From positions 1-38,877 of the IMG/VR virus record IMGVR_UViG_3300001815_000026: a stretch of DNA of 38,877 bases; one strand, 5' to 3'. Numbering within the stretch: position 1 is the stretch's first letter; each line of letters opens with the position of its first letter. The stretch comes from a virus. The notes under the pieces are model-generated. The model was not told the DNA's origin. It saw only the letters and a list, made by a program, of their open reading frames with translations, and did no database searches. Made by a program: the position numbers and the translations under genes. Positions 703 to 7,431 of the stretch are shown one piece after another.

Positions 703-968
703 TGGTCCACCACCTTTAGTAGGCAAGCCGGAACCACGGTTGCTCCACAGCCGAGCCCGATTAGGAGTAGCTCGGCGACCCCTGGGATATCAACATCAAC
801 CAGCCTGCACGAGTAGACACCGTCGTCCTCATGGAGCGCCAGGCATGGATCATCGTCGCCGGCAAGCGAGCAAGGCAGTTGCCTGCAACACTCTCCACAT
901 CGACTACAAGGCACATCCGTGCCAGCCACCCGCCACTCGCCATCACCAGTCCACCAATTATTGGTCAT
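699..968 (-). CDS. Small cysteine-cluster protein (YkgJ-like)
   Basis: The product is 89 residues. The N-terminal half carries closely spaced cysteines (CSRCGECCRQLPC, then CLAL and SCRL). This resembles the zinc/iron-chelating cysteine cluster of the YkgJ family, though the protein is shorter than the usual family member. A metal-binding role is inferred from the Cys spacing only. The gene overlaps the end of the DUF3987 gene upstream by 11 bases and the coiled-coil gene downstream by 4 bases, so the three are probably co-translated. No phage function is established. Confidence 0.65.
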   Translation of the reverse strand: MTNNWWTGDGEWRVAGTDVPCSRCGECCRQLPCSLAGDDDPCLALHEDDGVYSCRLVDVDIPGVAELLLIGLGCGATVVPACLLKVVDQ

Positions 969-3036
969 CGTTGTCTCCTTTGCCCGCTAACACGTTAGCA
1001 AGCCAATCGCTGTTGTTGTCGTTGTCGTTATCAGTAGCGTTATCGCTATCGGTAACGTTATCACCACCCAGGCCTTTTGTCAGTTTTGTCAGTGACTTTT
1101 TGGCGTGGTCACTTTTGTCAAACCCTCTGTGTGTGGGTCTCAAAAAACATCTATCTATCTTATTAGAATCACTACACTTGCCTATTTCTTGTGCAGATTT
1201 TATGTAAGCTTCACTACTTTTGGACGTGTATTTACCAGTGCCAGATTCCACTGACAGAACTGACAAAAGGTCGGTTTTGGGCTTAACGTTGGTTAACGTT
1301 ACATCATTAGGCCTAACGTTATTTAGCGTTATTACCGTTGAGGGCCTACCACCTGTCGTTATTATCTCTCGGCGACAATGACCGAGCCGCTCCAGGGCGT
1401 TAACGGCGCGGTCGACAGTATCGTTATCCGATAGGCCTGCCCATCCGTTGCGATAGATACCTCGTATCGTGTCGCCGCTGGATACCTCACCGGTCTCGAT
1501 CTTGGCTGCCAGGGCATGCGCTGCGACTATCTCAGGCGCTACTGTGCGCGCGTGGAGCCGGTCAACGTGCTGCTCGAGGTACTCACACCAGGCGATGGCC
1601 AGGCGCGCGCAGTCGGCTGTGATCCGGATGTACTCGCCGGGCTCCTGCGCCGGGGCGCCACCACCCAGACACCGGTCGATGTCGATTACGGTGTGGAAGA
1701 TCGCCGCAAGGGACGGCGTCAGGCTTCGGTATTTGGCCAAGTGGCCGCACTTAATCGGCTGCTCGTGGAGGTCGCCGCGCCGGATCCGCTGCTCCAGGTT
1801 GGAGCGCCACTCGTCGAAGATCTCCTGGGCCTGGAAGCTGAAAATCATGTCCTTTGGTTTGGTGTGGTCCATGATCTGGTCGACGGCGTCGAAGATCTCG
1901 AACGCGCGCTTTTTGTCGGCGTCAGAGCAGCCAGTTCGACGTGGTGCCCATTCTGGGAGGGTGTCTACGAACACCAGGACTTGCATGCGCTGTAGCAGCC
2001 CGTCGTCGCTCGTGCCATCTGAGACGCCCCGGATCAGCGGTGCGAGCCGGGCTGGCTGGATCGTGCCGTACAGGGCCAGGCAGTTGGCGGGGACGTAGAT
2101 CGTGCCGCGGCCGATCCGGTCGATAGTGCTGGATTTGTCTCCGTCCCAGGCCTCGAGGTAGTATCCTCGGTCTGCCTCGTGGCCCTGTTTGGCCAGCGTG
2201 GCCAGCCATCCGGCGAGCTCGTCGCGCAGGAGTAGCAGGCCTCTGGGGTTGTCGCGCTGGATCTCCTGGAGCTTTTCCAGGCTCGCGTCCTGGACGCTGT
2301 ATCGCCTCACCGAAACCTTGCAATCCTCGATCTCGTCCATGATCCGGCGCAGGTCGTGCGGATCGGCGTCACCTCGGCGCTTCGCCTTTGAGAGCTTCGC
2401 TTCCAGGGCCATGCGCTGCGGTATGGCGTCTGATTCGAGCGCATCGAAGCGCTCACGCTCGCGCTTGATCAGTGGCTCGAGGGGGGCTGTGGCTGCTGCC
2501 AGGGCCGGGGATTTGAGTAGGCCAGGCGGTGCGACGGTGCAGCCCCACAGGTTGGGTATCACGCGCCACGGGTTGCCCGGCTCAGGGGACACGGTGGCGC
2601 CGCGCCCCATGATGGCGCTCAGTGCGACCAGGGCGGGGGCGGCAACGCCGACCAGCGGTGTGCAGAGGTCATCGGCCTCACCTGTGATCCATCCCCTGAG
2701 CGGCTCCGGTATCAACTCGGGCGGTAGCTCTGGCGCCGGTGGAGTCATCGGCGGGAGCGGCTGTTTTTCCGGCCACGGCGGGCTGATATCGGCGGGTGCC
2801 TCGTGATCCTCGTGCGGCGGCGGCTCGTCGTCGGCAGCAAATGGGTCGAGTATGAGGATCCCGTCCAGGCCGAGGTCAACCCGCTCATCGGCGGTCAATC
2901 CGTCGTCTATGGCGCAGATATCGGCGTCGGGCCACATGCGCCGCGCGTGGTGCCAGCTCACGGCGTAGTGCATCGGCTCGGCGAGCTGGCCGCCGACGTG
3001 CGGCAGGAAAATATCCCGGGCGCAGGGTGGTATCAC
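958..3036 (-). CDS. DUF3987-family replication protein (primase/helicase-like)
   Basis: The product is 692 residues. Residues about 100-520 match the DUF3987 (YfjI-like) family of ATPases linked to phage and plasmid replication. A P-loop-like APPGLLKS lies at 169-176 and a Walker B-like LLLLRDELAGW at 267-277. A Pro-rich linker occupies 72-112. The C-terminal 120 residues are polar and Asn/Asp-rich, and their DNA is AT-rich and repeat-bearing (see the candidate origin). The start is a GTG at 3036 that overlaps the upstream stop (GTGA); a weaker alternative is the internal ATG at codon 22. With the SF2 helicase it probably forms the phage replication machinery, since no DNA polymerase is seen. 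The family call is good; the exact activity is inferred. Confidence 0.8.
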   Translation of the reverse strand: MIPPCARDIFLPHVGGQLAEPMHYAVSWHHARRMWPDADICAIDDGLTADERVDLGLDGILILDPFAADDEPPPHEDHEAPADISPPWPEKQPLPPMTPPAPELPPELIPEPLRGWITGEADDLCTPLVGVAAPALVALSAIMGRGATVSPEPGNPWRVIPNLWGCTVAPPGLLKSPALAAATAPLEPLIKRERERFDALESDAIPQRMALEAKLSKAKRRGDADPHDLRRIMDEIEDCKVSVRRYSVQDASLEKLQEIQRDNPRGLLLLRDELAGWLATLAKQGHEADRGYYLEAWDGDKSSTIDRIGRGTIYVPANCLALYGTIQPARLAPLIRGVSDGTSDDGLLQRMQVLVFVDTLPEWAPRRTGCSDADKKRAFEIFDAVDQIMDHTKPKDMIFSFQAQEIFDEWRSNLEQRIRRGDLHEQPIKCGHLAKYRSLTPSLAAIFHTVIDIDRCLGGGAPAQEPGEYIRITADCARLAIAWCEYLEQHVDRLHARTVAPEIVAAHALAAKIETGEVSSGDTIRGIYRNGWAGLSDNDTVDRAVNALERLGHCRREIITTGGRPSTVITLNNVRPNDVTLTNVKPKTDLLSVLSVESGTGKYTSKSSEAYIKSAQEIGKCSDSNKIDRCFLRPTHRGFDKSDHAKKSLTKLTKGLGGDNVTDSDNATDNDNDNNSDWLANVLAGKGDNDDQ
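1023..1340. repeat. Candidate replication origin: TAACGTTA/CGTTATC repeats plus AT-rich island
   Basis: The 3' part of the DUF3987 gene holds a cluster of short repeats. CGTTATC occurs at 1026-1032, 1038-1044 and 1056-1062. TAACGTTA (a palindrome) or its 7/8 match occurs at 1053-1060, 1284-1291, 1294-1301 and 1314-1321, with a TAGCGTTATT variant at 1324-1333. Between the two clusters, 1138-1215 is conspicuously AT-rich against a GC-rich background. Iterons next to an AT-rich stretch inside a replication gene recall lambda-type origins (established for lambdoid phages). That this is an origin is inference. Confidence 0.4.
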
Positions 3037-4196
3037 TGATCGCCGCCTTCGAGTAGTGCGCGGAGAGTTCGTTGAACCATGAACACCGGTTCACTTGGGT
3101 GCAACCGTTGAGCCGAGAGATCGTGTGCGTCCCTAATCCCATCCCTGAGCCGGTCCACCTCAGCCCGTGCGGCGTCGCGCTCGGATTCCGCCACTTCTCT
3201 GGCCATCAACTCCCTTTGCCATCGCTTGTATCTGTCGTCGCGCTGGTCTAGGGCCACATCTAGAGACGAAAAGCCTATGTTTGACTCATCACGTTTCTGC
3301 CGCCACTCCCTGAAAATCCGCTTGCACGCCTTGAGGTAGCGGGCTGCCATTTTCTGGGCCAATGTCAGATCCTGCTCGAGCGCGTCCGCCATTGTGGCCC
3401 ACCCCGCAGCGTCAGCGTCGGCGCCCCCGTATGCGTCCTCCAACTCCGCGATCCGCCTGTGCACCGCCTCCCATTGCTCTGGTAGCGCACACACACCAAA
3501 GTTCTCGCTGGGCTCATCGTGCGCAGGTGGTGACATGGGCGGCTTGCCACAATGACCGCAAACCATAGGGTGAGTCACCCATGGGCAGCTACATGTCTCC
3601 CGTGGCTCCGGCGCACCGTGAATGGGCAAACTAACGACTATCCGTCTGTTCATGCCATCCCTCACCGCCCTAACTACAATGTCCATCTCATGTGGTCTCG
3701 TCCGATAGGTGTCCACCAATAGCCGAGCGGAGTCGAGGAAGAATCTAGCATCACCAGATACAGAGTGTCGGGAGTCGGCAAGCTGCTTTTTCAGCCGCTC
3801 TACTTCAGCGGTAGCGGCAATCAGGTCGTAGCACGCGCTCCCGTAGCACTGTTGCTTCCAGTTCGCGCACCTCTCGCACCTTCCCGGTTCCCCGGCGGTC
3901 TCGAGGCGGTCGGCCATGCGCTCTAGTTGTTCCGGCTTCACTGCGAGGACCCAATTGCCGATCCCGTTTTGGTGGCACTTGTCGTACCTCACTATCTCAC
4001 GCAATTCCCCAGCCACCTCTAGCACGGCATCAGATACGCGGGGGAGGGCTTGCCATGCATTTTTGTAGATCTCGGCATAGTGCAGCGGACACTTCGCGGA
4101 GTCGCACCGCACACTGTCGCCGCCCCTACTGTAGTCCGCGTCATCCCCACAAATCGGACACGGCAACAGTCCGGATTTTCCGGTGGGTTCAGTCAT
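3033..4196 (-). CDS. Zinc-ribbon (Lar-like) N-terminus with long helical region
   Basis: The product is 387 residues. The N-terminus (about 10-50) carries LLPCPICG, a second Cys pair and AWQALP, as in Lar-type restriction-alleviation zinc ribbons. Lar proteins are usually under 100 residues, so this is a much longer composite. More Cys clusters appear near 107-123 and 200-218, and residues about 235-380 are charged and probably coiled coil. The ATG at 4196 is chosen over a GTG one codon earlier because it follows GGAGGA by six bases and makes a TGATG junction with the upstream stop. A restriction-alleviation role is only suggested by the N-terminal match. Confidence 0.6.
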   Translation of the reverse strand: MTEPTGKSGLLPCPICGDDADYSRGGDSVRCDSAKCPLHYAEIYKNAWQALPRVSDAVLEVAGELREIVRYDKCHQNGIGNWVLAVKPEQLERMADRLETAGEPGRCERCANWKQQCYGSACYDLIAATAEVERLKKQLADSRHSVSGDARFFLDSARLLVDTYRTRPHEMDIVVRAVRDGMNRRIVVSLPIHGAPEPRETCSCPWVTHPMVCGHCGKPPMSPPAHDEPSENFGVCALPEQWEAVHRRIAELEDAYGGADADAAGWATMADALEQDLTLAQKMAARYLKACKRIFREWRQKRDESNIGFSSLDVALDQRDDRYKRWQRELMAREVAESERDAARAEVDRLRDGIRDAHDLSAQRLHPSEPVFMVQRTLRALLEGGDQ

Positions 4197-4384
4197 CACT
4201 CATCCTCCAGCGTCTCGCACCAGGACACCCACGTGTCGCCGGTGATGTCGTCGTATTCGACCACGCCAGCACACCCGCAGTCATCGCAAATGATATCCTC
4301 ATCCGGCTGCACCATGCCGTCGCCGTGGTCATACCGCACACCGAGCCCACACACGGGGCACTCGTCCCACACTTCGTCACTCAT
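4196..4384 (-). CDS. Small acidic zinc-ribbon protein
   Basis: The product is 62 residues with two Cys pairs, CPVCG near the N-terminus and CDDCGC in the middle, as in a zinc ribbon. It is very acidic (many Asp and Glu). The start ATG overlaps the preceding stop (ATGA), and its own stop overlaps the next start. It lies in a run of small Cys-pair proteins around the helicase. The function is unknown. Confidence 0.6.
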   Translation of the reverse strand: MSDEVWDECPVCGLGVRYDHGDGMVQPDEDIICDDCGCAGVVEYDDITGDTWVSWCETLEDE

Positions 4385-4701
4385 CCCTCACCGTCCTTTC
4401 GCTGTGGGGAGAGGCGGTCGGCCCAGTAGTTGATTTTGTTGCGCGCATCCAACGCACCAAACCCAGGGCCAAGCAACACAAGCCGTTCGCGCGACGTGTC
4501 CACATTGCTATACTCCCGCATCTCCCTTACTACCCCCTCCACGTCGGGAGCGTGATAGCCCCACTCACAGTCACGCCATTCAGTCGCACACCCGGTGCAC
4601 AGATAGATATCGTCTATGCAGTTTGGCTGTACCCGCGAGGCGTAGCTGCACTCCGCCCCGCACTCGGGACACATGGGGATCTCTGCGCGTGTTAGTTTCA
4701 T
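4381..4701 (-). CDS. Small zinc-ribbon protein
   Basis: The product is 106 residues from an ATG at 4701 that overlaps the helicase stop (ATGA). Cys pairs CPECG, near residue 11, and CTGC, near residue 35, suggest a zinc ribbon. The C-terminal half contains a stretch near NKINYWADRLSP. An upstream in-frame extension in the helicase tail is rejected because it is Arg/Gly-rich shadow sequence without a ribosome binding site. The function is unknown. Confidence 0.6.
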   Translation of the reverse strand: MKLTRAEIPMCPECGAECSYASRVQPNCIDDIYLCTGCATEWRDCEWGYHAPDVEGVVREMREYSNVDTSRERLVLLGPGFGALDARNKINYWADRLSPQRKDGEG

Positions 4702-7094
4702 CTGTCTTGCCCTCCCTCGGCCTCGGCGAGCTCGCGGTACACTTTCGCCCGCGCCCTTGCGCCGTTGGCCAATACTGGGACTCCCCAGTCGCATAGGTCG
4801 ATAATTCGACCGTGTGTTTTCCCCGGCGCCGGACGCAGCACGCGCCCGATCGCCTGCAGCAGTCTCCCCGACCACTTGATCGGCGTCGCCAGTATCGCCG
4901 TGGAAGCCGCGGGCAGATTGAATCCCTCGCCAACGAGCTGAGTCGTGGCCAGGATAACCGGCACCTTGCCCGCCGCGATCTTCGCCTCGGCGTCGCGTCG
5001 CGCAGCCGCGCCGAGCTGCCCATGGAGCATGACGCCGCCGGCAGTGCGCGTGTAGTAGTTGATCATCTCAAGGTGTTCGACTCGGTCGCTCAGCACGAGC
5101 ACGAGCCCGTCGGCGCAGGCGCGCGCCGCTTGGTCGACGATCTGCCTGTTGCGATCGCCATCGGTCACGACAGCGGAGATCACCGCCTGATAATGCTCTG
5201 ACGGGTCAGTGTCGGTGACGAAGTCGGTCCCCACCTGCTCCACCTCGGTGGGCAGCACGTGACCGCTGCGCACGAGGAGCTCCCGCTCCACAGTGGTAGT
5301 CGGGCCGAGCGCCCAGCCGATGGCGTCAGTGAGCCCGTCGCGTCGGTACGGCGTCGCGCTCAGCCCGAGACGATACCGGCATCCGAAGTACTTGAGCGTT
5401 TGCCAGTAGCTGCCCGCTGGTGCCCTGTGGCAGTTATGCACCAGGATGCCGTCGGCAAAGTAGTTGTGCCGGTGTTCCACCTCTAGGTTATAGACAAGAC
5501 CGTCCGGACACAGCCCTCCAAATCGTCCATCACTTCCTGGTTCGTGAATCTCCACACGGTCCACCCGAGACCACGCAAGAAGCGCTCCTTTTTCCGGTCC
5601 TGTTTCTGTCTGCTCAGTGCGCAATGGCTTAGCCCGTCCACCTCCACCGCAACCATTCTCCCGATGTTTGCCACGTCCACCTTGTAGTGAGTTGGGAATC
5701 CTGATCCACGGGGCTTTCCGGTCCTTATAATCACCTCCATGTCCCACATCAGAGCGTCCGCCAGCATCTTCTGCGGGACCGTGGGCCCGCGCCCGTTCCC
5801 TCCTTGGGTAGGTGGCTTGTGGCCCATCTCCTTCAGTCTGGCTGACACTTTCGCGCGGATCTCCGGCCGGTGCATGGGGTTGTTTTTCTTCATTCGTGCC
5901 GATGCATGCTTCTTGTTCATGGCGACCATAGTCTGCCTCGCCCTGTTCGCAAGCCAAGTCTGGGCGCACTCGTCCGAGCAATAGAATGCGCCGCGGCGCG
6001 CCCGATCTAGCCCCTTCTTGCCGCTCAACTCCACCGGCCTTCCGCACTGCTTGCACTCCCCGTGAACTATCTTCCGCCGCTCCCACCTTCGTTGGGCCCT
6101 GCATTCCGGAGAGCAGTACGGGGTCATTGTTGAGTTCCAACTCTTCGGGGTGTACTTCTTCCCGCACACGTCGCAAGTCTTCGGTTTCATCCTGTTTCCT
6201 TTCAATGACGAAATCCCCGGCGCGCAACTCCAGTGCGGGCACATACCCGCGGCGCGTGTACACCGGGTGACCAGGTGTACACACTAGCGCGGATCCGGTG
6301 CGTAGGCAAAGGGATATCAATCTGCTTGGCTGACTGAAGTACGTTTTCGTCACCCTGCGTCGCACAACCGCGCCGGTGGAGTGGTTCACGCACTCGACTC
6401 GATCGCCGACTCTGCGCTGCTCTATCGGCACGCCATCAACCATTGTTCCGGCTGGCACGCACTCGTCGACGACCAGGTGACCGATATCCTCGGCCAGCAC
6501 GTCGGCGCACCTGGCCAGCGAATTGATGATCGCGACGATCACCGGGCTGGTCATGTGCCGGGGCTTGCCGCCGCCGATAGTCCCGGCCTCCACGCCGAGA
6601 AACTGCTCCACGGCGTCGACCCACTGCGCCTGCAACATCCGGTTGTGCACCGTGATCAGCGCGGGCTGTCGTCGCTGCGCGATGGCGTAGCAACCCATGA
6701 CGGTCTTTCCGCTGCCGGTCGGCGCCTCGAGCACGCCGAAGTCGCGCCGGGTCACCTGAGCCAGCGCGGCGAGTTGATACAGTCGCAGGTCGCCGCGGAA
6801 CTTGTAGTCAACCTCGGGCAGCGTCTGCAGTTGCATCTCGACCTCAACGGATTCGCCCGCGCGGTCGGCGGCGGTGATCGCCATCTGCATGCAGCCGCCC
6901 GGGATGGTCAACCCGGTGTCCCCGTGTGTCGTGTAGTATTCGAGCACCTTGGGTATCCCGAACGGCTTTTTACCGGCCTTGACGGCGCCGATGTATCGCG
7001 GATTGGGCAGCGTCAGCGTGGTTTTGATCTCGCGCATGGCGGCAGGGCCGCAGTCGAAGATCTCGATCTCGCCGCTCGTGTGTTCAATCCTCAC
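4698..7094 (-). CDS. SF2 (DEAD/DEAH-type) helicase interrupted by an intein
   Basis: The precursor is 798 residues. The host protein is an SF2 helicase: Walker A EAPTGSGKT (123-131), motif III-like GLSATPYRRDG (577-587) and motif VI QAIGRVLRP (747-755). The Walker B/DEXH motif is cut by an intein. Asp210-Glu211 are followed by intein Cys212, and Cys555-His556 resume the extein, so splicing rebuilds DECH. The intein is 343 residues (212-554) and the spliced helicase would be 455. Before splicing the ATPase site is broken, so activity should depend on splicing. The start is a GTG at 7094 with GGAGG seven bases upstream, overlapping the nuclease gene by 11 bases. The likely role is remodelling or unwinding DNA during phage replication or recombination (UvsW-like). 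Confidence 0.9.
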   Translation of the reverse strand: MRIEHTSGEIEIFDCGPAAMREIKTTLTLPNPRYIGAVKAGKKPFGIPKVLEYYTTHGDTGLTIPGGCMQMAITAADRAGESVEVEMQLQTLPEVDYKFRGDLRLYQLAALAQVTRRDFGVLEAPTGSGKTVMGCYAIAQRRQPALITVHNRMLQAQWVDAVEQFLGVEAGTIGGGKPRHMTSPVIVAIINSLARCADVLAEDIGHLVVDECVPAGTMVDGVPIEQRRVGDRVECVNHSTGAVVRRRVTKTYFSQPSRLISLCLRTGSALVCTPGHPVYTRRGYVPALELRAGDFVIERKQDETEDLRRVREEVHPEELELNNDPVLLSGMQGPTKVGAAEDSSRGVQAVRKAGGVERQEGARSGAPRRILLLGRVRPDLACEQGEADYGRHEQEACIGTNEEKQPHAPAGDPRESVSQTEGDGPQATYPRRERARAHGPAEDAGGRSDVGHGGDYKDRKAPWIRIPNSLQGGRGKHRENGCGGGGRAKPLRTEQTETGPEKGALLAWSRVDRVEIHEPGSDGRFGGLCPDGLVYNLEVEHRHNYFADGILVHNCHRAPAGSYWQTLKYFGCRYRLGLSATPYRRDGLTDAIGWALGPTTTVERELLVRSGHVLPTEVEQVGTDFVTDTDPSEHYQAVISAVVTDGDRNRQIVDQAARACADGLVLVLSDRVEHLEMINYYTRTAGGVMLHGQLGAAARRDAEAKIAAGKVPVILATTQLVGEGFNLPAASTAILATPIKWSGRLLQAIGRVLRPAPGKTHGRIIDLCDWGVPVLANGARARAKVYRELAEAEGGQDR
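5433..6461 (-). mobile_element. Intein in the helicase DECH motif, hosting an out-of-frame endonuclease gene
   Basis: Block A starts at Cys212 (CVPAGTMVDG). Block B is TPGHPVY with the usual His. Block F is VYNLEVEHRHNYF, and block G ends VHN, followed by Cys+1. The splicing parts are about residues 212-300 and 505-554, so it is a mini-intein of roughly 140 residues. The roughly 205 residues between them are Gly/Arg/Glu/Pro-rich with no LAGLIDADG or HNH motif in this frame. That filler is the reading of the endonuclease gene at 5483-6190 in another frame. All nucleophiles and the His-Asn end are present, so splicing is plausible; whether the long filler permits it is unknown. Confidence 0.9.
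5483..6190 (-). CDS. Zinc-finger / NUMOD3 / Vsr-like homing endonuclease nested in the intein
   Basis: The product is 235 residues, read in the +1 frame relative to the surrounding intein. The start ATG at 6190 has AAAGGA six bases upstream, so it has its own ribosome binding site. In order it has two Cys4 fingers (C6, C9, C26, C30 and C46, C49, C71, C75), a NUMOD3-type stretch (NPMHRPEIRAKVSA, about 104-117), and a PD-(D/E)XK domain of the DUF559/Vsr-like type. That domain shows Asp172 (KVDVA), Glu183-Val-Asp185 (VAVEVDGLSH) and a closing WTVWRFTNQEV. This matches the Vsr-like (EDxHD) homing endonucleases known near split inteins and group I introns. It probably cuts the intein-free helicase allele and so spreads the intein. 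Its stop codon lies inside intein block F. Confidence 0.88.
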   Translation of the reverse strand: MKPKTCDVCGKKYTPKSWNSTMTPYCSPECRAQRRWERRKIVHGECKQCGRPVELSGKKGLDRARRGAFYCSDECAQTWLANRARQTMVAMNKKHASARMKKNNPMHRPEIRAKVSARLKEMGHKPPTQGGNGRGPTVPQKMLADALMWDMEVIIRTGKPRGSGFPTHYKVDVANIGRMVAVEVDGLSHCALSRQKQDRKKERFLRGLGWTVWRFTNQEVMDDLEGCVRTVLSIT

Positions 7095-7431
7095 GAAACA
7101 TCCTCCCTAGGACCGCCGCGGCCTCGCGGTCGATCCAGTCATTGGCGCGCATGACGATCACCGGCGGGCGGCGGTCAAGGCGCAGATATAACACTATGGG
7201 CCTGGTATCACCGGCGTCGGCGCTATCTTCCTCGGCCTGCCTGAGCGCAGCCCAGAGGTTGATCCGGGCGCCGTGTTTTGACTCGATCCAGAACGGTGTG
7301 TTCTCCACATCGCAGTAATCGGCGCCGTTGTACTGGTCGCTCGTGGACTTGGCTTTGGGCCACACCCTGCGCATCAGGTCGCGGCAGTACAACTGCCCCC
7401 GCTTGCCCTTTGCTCGGCTGGCTTTACCCAT
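7084..7431 (-). CDS. PD-(D/E)XK nuclease, Holliday-junction-resolvase-like
   Basis: The product is 115 residues. A basic N-terminus (GKASRAKGKRGQLY) is followed by GADYCDVENTPFWIESKHG, which has the Asp...Glu-x-Lys spacing of PD-(D/E)XK nucleases. Next comes an ALRQAEEDS helix and a strand-rich end with PIVLYLRLDRRPPVIVM. The size and order fit small phage resolvase-like nucleases. A role in resolving branched DNA before packaging, next to the helicase, is inferred. The start ATG overlaps the upstream gene by 8 bases. Confidence 0.65.
   Translation of the reverse strand: MGKASRAKGKRGQLYCRDLMRRVWPKAKSTSDQYNGADYCDVENTPFWIESKHGARINLWAALRQAEEDSADAGDTRPIVLYLRLDRRPPVIVMRANDWIDREAAAVLGRMFRED

What the first reader, a model, noticed from the sequence alone, without database searches (positions are those of the whole stretch)
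5433..6461. Homing endonuclease gene nested out of frame inside a continuous intein that splits a helicase DECH box
Seen directly: the helicase frame is open over 798 codons. Intein blocks A, B, F and G with Cys1, His-Asn and Cys+1 are present, and the insertion point is exactly between DE and CH of the ATPase motif. In the +1 frame a full zinc-finger/NUMOD3/Vsr-like nuclease gene with its own AAAGGA site lies inside. Known: inteins normally carry an in-frame endonuclease, and Vsr-like endonucleases have been described as free-standing genes between halves of split inteins. Inference: this is an intermediate or alternative architecture. A mini-intein was invaded by a free-standing homing gene, yet the intein frame stayed open, so a cis-splicing precursor with about 200 residues of filler is still made. 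The two genes could be expressed from one transcript by separate initiation.
Basis: partly seen in the sequence, partly recalled or inferred. Interest (0 to 1): 0.92.

Follow-up and report, generated by a model that had tools for sequence, protein, structure and literature searches.

The report
Intein with endonuclease overprinted out-of-frame
Phages carry self-splicing protein inserts (inteins) whose DNA-cutting mobility gene is written in a second reading frame of the same DNA, and in about 100 distinct lineages selection has kept both frames readable, an arrangement I found no description of and which can break down into a split intein.

Summary
The helicase frame (7094-4698, minus strand) is open over 798 codons. 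A canonical intein (5433-6461) splits DE|CH, and an EDxHD/DUF559 homing endonuclease gene (6190-5483) lies inside it in the +1 frame.

It is not a one-off intermediate. Searches by endonuclease and by intein sequence gave 99 non-redundant loci (28-66% GC; phages, MAGs, cultured Vibrio, Corynebacterium and Pseudomonas phages) with the same layout and frame offset, in SF2 helicases and clamp loaders. The intein frame holds 0 stops where codon permutation predicts about 930.

Across most of the overlap the intein-frame protein shows no constraint beyond avoiding stops, and AlphaFold calls it disordered. In the last ~30 codons both frames are constrained (z up to 13.6): the same bases encode the nuclease C-terminus and an intein strand.

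Related loci show other stages: an empty site with a co-conversion-like scar, mini-inteins with a nuclease fossil left in the +1 frame, and a fractured (split) version nested inside the overprinted clade. Best reading: a cis-splicing intein with a separately initiated, overprinted endonuclease; a new variant of a known kind. Splicing, expression and homing are inferred, not shown.

The parts
4698..7094 (-). Intein-containing SF2 (ResIII/XPB-like) helicase precursor CDS, GTG start, 798 aa
6462..7094 (-). N-extein (211 aa, ends ...VVDE at Walker B/DECH box)
   Evidence: intein-free homologue L001
5433..6461 (-). Intein, 343 aa (C1 ... HN), inserted DE|CH
6183..6461 (-). N-terminal Hint half (blocks A, B), overlapped only by the first codons of the nuclease gene from its 6190 start
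   Evidence: AlphaFold pLDDT 94-98 for intein residues 1-90
5595..6182 (-). Overprinted filler in the intein frame: constrained only to avoid stops, predicted disordered
5486..5569 (-). Dual-coding segment: nuclease residues 208-235 in one frame, intein C-terminal Hint strands in the other
   Evidence: z up to 13.6
5433..5594 (-). C-terminal Hint half (blocks F, G; ends VHN)
   Evidence: AlphaFold pLDDT 86-97, NCBIfam intein_Cterm
4698..5432 (-). C-extein starting C+1-H, with stop
5483..6190 (-). Nested EDxHD/DUF559 homing endonuclease gene (235 aa), +1 frame; zinc-finger region, NUMOD3-like MKKNNPMH motif, Vsr-like nuclease domain
6197..6202 (-). Shine-Dalgarno-like AAAGGA, 6 nt upstream of the nuclease ATG
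   Evidence: sequence; for enrichment in relatives
5343..5432 (-). Putative co-conversion tract: 73% identity to empty-site relative L001 against 88-91% on either side

Best explanation
This is a mobile intein whose homing endonuclease gene is overprinted. One mRNA carries two reading frames. The host frame (frame 0) is translated straight through to give an N-extein / Hint-N / disordered filler / Hint-C / C-extein precursor, which splices in cis to restore the helicase DECH box. A second initiation inside the intein, from an internal Shine-Dalgarno and ATG, reads the +1 frame and makes a free EDxHD endonuclease. That enzyme cuts the intein-free DECH-coding allele and is copied in together with the intein by recombination. 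Because the host needs the spliced protein, selection removes any stop in frame 0 while the nuclease is kept in frame +1. The last ~30 codons are read usefully in both frames. The arrangement probably arose once, spread between SF2 helicase and clamp-loader genes at Walker B, and decays either by in-frame deletion of the nuclease body (mini-intein with a fossil) or by loss of frame 0 (fractured, split intein). Shown: anatomy, conservation, selection on both frames, fold predictions, empty site, decay forms. Inferred: splicing, expression, cleavage and homing.
For: (1) 99 non-redundant loci, GC 28-66%: 0 intein-frame stops against ~930 expected by synonymous permutation; third frame 1683 stops; 55-locus set with host codon usage: 877 expected, summed log10 P -522. 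(2) The 79 further loci found by intein sequence were open and +1-nested as far as each could be read: 76 automatically, 2 by eye, 1 cut by the contig end. (3) Related endonucleases outside this arrangement (fractured L037, in-frame L006/L068/L074, antisense L005, free-standing ORFs) have 17-130 stops in the equivalent frame. (4) Per-column test: no excess intein-frame constraint over nuclease residues 1-207, strong excess at 208-235. (5) Nuclease codon changes p3>p1>p2; D172, E183, D185, H189, D198 invariant in 51 homologues. (6) SD of 5 nt or more at 35% of nuclease starts against 6% of control ATGs; a nuclease-frame stop lies within 60 nt upstream in 81/99, which leaves little room for a fusion. 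(7) AlphaFold: both Hint halves pLDDT ~86-98, filler ~50, nuclease 91.8; Foldseek top hits Mtu RecA intein and I-Bth0305I. (8) Empty site L001 with a divergent 90-nt 3' flank. (9) Nuclease more alike than exteins: 98 vs 87%, 59 vs 29%. (10) Fossil nuclease C-termini in the +1 frame of mini-inteins: L164-L169 at z 4.7-6.2 and L240 at z 5.6 above synonymous shuffles.
Against: No protein-level or cleavage data. The window's start-site SD is modest, and about two thirds of relatives lack an SD of 5 nt or more at the first ATG. Pfam Intein_splicing is just under its cut-off for the window. Weak excess filler similarity in pairwise tests (mean z 2.3) could hide a small additional constraint, although the per-column test places it in the C-terminal overlap.
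Confidence: 0.88

Rival explanations
1. Ordinary split (fractured) intein with a free-standing endonuclease; the open frame is chance or a sequencing error.
For: Fractured genes with Vsr-like HEGs are described (Dassa 2009, from memory), and L037/L071 is such a case.
Against: 0 stops in 99 loci against about 930 expected; even the window alone has P 0.001.
Confidence: 0.01
2. The endonuclease is made by +1 ribosomal frameshifting as a Hint-N/nuclease fusion, not by internal initiation.
For: The nuclease frame is always +1, and many starts lack a strong SD.
Against: A nuclease-frame stop lies a median 18 nt upstream of the ATG, leaving almost no window for a shift; SD enrichment of about six-fold. 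Slippery sequences were not searched for.
Confidence: 0.05
3. The frame-0 filler is itself a functional domain, for example regulating splicing or binding DNA, and is the reason the frame is open.
For: Pairwise filler identity is slightly above simulation (30 vs 25%).
Against: Per-column conservation over nuclease residues 1-207 equals expectation; predicted disordered; largely deleted in the mini-intein derivatives.
Confidence: 0.05
4. The element is not spliced and is tolerated like the ShiLan out-of-frame HNH insertion.
For: ShiLan is an open-frame insertion with a hidden HNH gene (PMC11855218).
Against: Here C1, block-B His and C-terminal His-Asn are conserved in 48 diverse members (C1, H65 and N343 invariant; H342 nearly so), both Hint halves fold, and the insertion would destroy Walker B of a replication ATPase.
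Confidence: 0.03

Closest known systems
Canonical full-length inteins with an in-frame LAGLIDADG/HNH endonuclease
   Same: Hint fold, C1/His/His-Asn/C+1 chemistry, insertion at a conserved ATPase motif, homing endonuclease between the Hint halves.
   Different: The endonuclease is not a domain of the intein protein; it is a separate protein in the +1 frame and the intein carries an apparently meaningless filler instead.
Fractured genes: split inteins with a free-standing Vsr-like endonuclease (Dassa et al. 2009; recalled, paper not held in the library)
   Same: Same endonuclease type (EDxHD/Vsr-like), DNA synthesis/repair host genes, phage setting, endonuclease gene between intein halves.
   Different: Here frame 0 stays open and splicing can be in cis. 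The fractured form L037/L071 has 24-25 frame-0 stops over the nuclease gene and appears as a derived branch of the overprinted clade.
ShiLan domain (PMC11855218, Arsenault, Gosselin and Gogarten 2025)
   Same: Open-frame insertion in a phage gene that hides a homing endonuclease in another frame.
   Different: HNH family, no intein, not spliced, in DNA methylases; here a complete Hint intein surrounds and overlaps an EDxHD nuclease.
I-Bth0305I (EDxHD homing endonuclease, PDB 3R3P)
   Same: Nuclease domain fold (Foldseek top hit, probability 1.00; profile hit E 0.014).
   Different: I-Bth0305I is group-I-intron encoded; different DNA-binding modules.

Membership tests
Intein (Hint, cis-splicing) | Cys1, block B T..H, His-Asn at the C-terminus, Cys/Ser/Thr +1 | tested here: met
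   C1, H65 and N343 invariant and H342 nearly so in 48 members; [HS]N|C in every locus where the intein C-terminus is held
Intein (Hint, cis-splicing) | Hint fold | tested here: met
   AlphaFold both halves pLDDT ~86-98; Foldseek Mtu RecA intein E 7e-6, TMt 0.76
Intein (Hint, cis-splicing) | Removal restores an intact host protein; empty sites exist | tested here: met
   L001 intein-free 455-aa helicase, best segment 90% identical
Intein (Hint, cis-splicing) | Actual protein splicing | not testable with these tools
   needs expression
Canonical intein with endonuclease domain | Endonuclease in the same reading frame as the Hint domain | tested here: not met
   nuclease is +1 in all 99 non-redundant loci
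Fractured gene / split intein | Stop codons separate the intein halves; two polypeptides | tested here: not met
   0 stops in frame 0; met only by L037/L038/L071
EDxHD homing endonuclease (I-Bth0305I type) | Vsr-like fold with conserved D/E/H/D residues | tested here: met
   invariant D172, E183, D185, H189, D198; 3R3P top Foldseek hit; DUF559 in 46/46
EDxHD homing endonuclease (I-Bth0305I type) | Site-specific cleavage of the empty allele | not testable with these tools
   only indirect: co-conversion-like tract, nuclease-extein identity discordance
ShiLan-type out-of-frame insertion | No self-splicing domain, HNH nuclease | tested here: not met
   Hint present; nuclease DUF559/EDxHD
Group I intron | Ribozyme covariance match | tested here: not met
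   no Rfam match with E up to 1 in 4600-7200

The most novel reading that the evidence does not exclude
Overprinted inteins are a distinct, old class of mobile intein in which the homing gene and the splicing protein share DNA in two frames, with a dual-coded strand. They are one natural route by which fractured genes and split inteins arise: frame-0 loss at the overprinted stage leaves the two halves already flanking an independent gene.
Probability: 0.65. Interest if true: 0.9.

Novelty: new variant of a known kind. Interest (0 to 1): 0.86.

Why it matters
A homing endonuclease gene and the intein that carries it are thought either to share one frame or to be separated by fracturing. Here about 100 lineages keep both proteins readable from the same DNA. 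This gives a clear, quantifiable case of selection to keep a frame open, a dual-coded segment between two unrelated folds, and a set of related stages (empty, mini, overprinted, fossil, fractured) that makes the open question of how split inteins arise directly testable. It also shows an annotation blind spot: in the seven cultured-phage records examined, such as CP-T1 and phi673, the region is annotated as one CDS (usually 'helicase') and the nuclease is missing.

Tried and rejected
The 48-intein alignment was too diverse for a pattern scan; 9- and 5-sequence subsets worked. Considered and rejected: chance open frame, sequencing error, fused in-frame nuclease, group I intron, functional filler. 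A first automatic labelling of host genes missed some clamp loaders and was corrected. L005 (antisense nuclease in a broken intein) and L006/L068/L074 (in-frame nuclease) were set aside as comparators. The pairwise filler test gave a weak signal that the per-column test traced to the C-terminal overlap.

Full report
What is there. The minus strand of the window carries a GTG-started, 798-codon open frame (7094-4698) with SF2 helicase domains interrupted by a Hint-type intein. The intein is 343 residues (6461-5433) and lies exactly between DE and CH of the Walker B motif. Inside it, in the +1 frame, is a gene for a 235-residue protein (6190-5483) with an AAAGGA site six bases upstream of its ATG. 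The protein has a zinc-finger region, a NUMOD3-like MKKNNPMH motif and a DUF559/Vsr-like nuclease domain. No Rfam intron model matches. The window is a contractile-tailed phage fragment (tail sheath, baseplate, terminase).

Empty site. IMG/VR contig 3300022688_000024 (L001) carries the same helicase without the intein: 455 aa, best segment 90% identical, next to the same RusA-like neighbour. DNA identity is 88-91% on both sides but 73% in the 90 bases just 3' of the insertion site, as expected from one-sided co-conversion during homing.

It is a family, not a curiosity. A nuclease-based scan of viral and genome contigs plus tblastn of phage records gave 69 intein-embedded loci including the window. 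These include cultured phages CP-T1, phi673, K391, 104E43.1, 159E43-1b, 1.088.O and MR14, where the whole region is annotated as one CDS and the nuclease is absent. An independent scan seeded by intein sequence gave 79 more loci, some on contigs already seen: 76 were classified automatically as open with a +1-nested nuclease, two more on inspection, and one is open up to the end of its contig. After removing near-duplicates 99 remain. In all of them the nuclease is +1 relative to the host frame; in nearly every locus whose termini are held the site reads DE|C...HN|C, with minor variants such as EE|C or SN|C. The hosts are SF2 helicases and clamp loaders (of the first 55, 40 and 15).

Selection on both frames. 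For each nuclease gene I shuffled synonymous codons. The 99 genes should hold about 930 stops in the host frame; they hold none, while the third frame holds 1683. Using each locus's own extein codon usage the 55-locus set predicts 877 stops, with summed log10 probability of zero stops -522. Loci are related, so this is not a strict probability, but single AT-rich members (28-29% GC) reach log10 P of about -10 to -15 on their own. Related nucleases outside this arrangement (fractured L037/L038/L071, in-frame L006/L068/L074, antisense L005, other ORFs) have 17-130 stops in that frame. So openness is a property of being inside a continuous intein, not of the nuclease sequence. The nuclease frame is also selected: substitutions follow p3>p1>p2, and D172, E183, D185, H189 and D198 are invariant in 51 homologues.

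Three zones. Column by column, host-frame conservation over nuclease residues 1-207 is what the nuclease protein plus stop avoidance predicts. From residue 208 to the end it is far higher (z up to 13.6). There the same bases encode the nuclease C-terminus (LGWxVLRFxNxEV...) and the intein strands RVESVEI...VYNLEVE. AlphaFold gives both Hint halves pLDDT of about 86-98, the filler around 50, and the nuclease 91.8. Foldseek's best hits are the Mtu RecA intein for the first and I-Bth0305I for the second.

Expression. A Shine-Dalgarno match of five or more bases precedes the first nuclease ATG in 35 of 99 loci against 6% of control ATGs, and a nuclease-frame stop lies a median 18 nt upstream. Internal initiation fits better than a frameshifted fusion, but about two thirds of loci lack a strong site and the mechanism is inferred.

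Mobility and decay. Nuclease identity exceeds extein identity in several pairs (98 vs 87%, 59 vs 29%). Mini-inteins at the same site come in two kinds. L164, L165, L166, L167/L170 (the same sequence), L168, L169 and L240 lack the nuclease body but keep its C-terminus as a fossil in the +1 frame; L164-L169 score z 4.7-6.2 above synonymous shuffles and L240 scores z 5.6. L171 and L173 show no fossil. L067 has a truncated nuclease in a still open intein. L037/L071 is fractured: the host frame is broken by many stops, the nuclease lies between the halves, and the C-terminal overlap is kept. On the tree it is sister to overprinted L124 with SH-aLRT 95, inside the overprinted clade rooted on the in-frame, antisense and free forms. 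The tree is a quick one with many open forks, so this direction is likely rather than proven.

Interpretation. The simplest account is one ancient founding event in which an EDxHD nuclease gene came to overlap the C-terminal Hint strands of an intein in the +1 frame, followed by spread as a homing unit. The host requirement for a spliced ATPase keeps frame 0 open. Loss of the nuclease by in-frame deletion gives fossil-bearing mini-inteins; loss of frame 0 gives fractured genes.

Literature. Searches of the held library found no description of an out-of-frame homing gene inside an intein. The nearest are the ShiLan hidden HNH insertion, which has no intein (PMC11855218), the EDxHD family review (PMC3943268), and fractured genes (Dassa et al. 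2009, from memory; not held). Subscription papers and preprints could hold an earlier mention.

Noticed in passing
L002/L050 (about 1083-4070 of L002): The clamp-loader gene with the overprinted intein carries a second intein splitting the Walker A motif (STG|C...N|CGKTT).
   Followed up: no
L004/L065 (1118-4741): The helicase carries a second intein downstream (CLDDQTQIL...VGNC) near the C-terminal helicase motif, in frame, in addition to the overprinted one.
   Followed up: no
L006, L068, L074: Mu-F-like head protein inteins carry a related DUF559 nuclease in frame, so this nuclease type also exists as a conventional intein domain.
   Followed up: partly
L005 3683-6799 (-) with 3905-4558 (+): Intein broken into two halves with a related nuclease on the opposite strand between them.
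   Followed up: partly
L067 3516-3836: Truncated nuclease (106 aa) in a still continuous 203-aa intein: apparently a decaying copy.
   Followed up: partly
L037/L038/L071: Fractured derivative; the C half could start at an in-frame ATG (MRRKKEQTVSFERV...), so two trans-splicing polypeptides are plausible. Its insertion site (DEHHR|C) differs by a few residues from DE|CH.
   Followed up: partly
window 7084-7431 (-): RusA-like Holliday junction resolvase next to the helicase, same order as in L001.
   Followed up: no
window 958-3036 (-): Second predicted DNA helicase (phrog_2373), in which I did not look for an intein.
   Followed up: no
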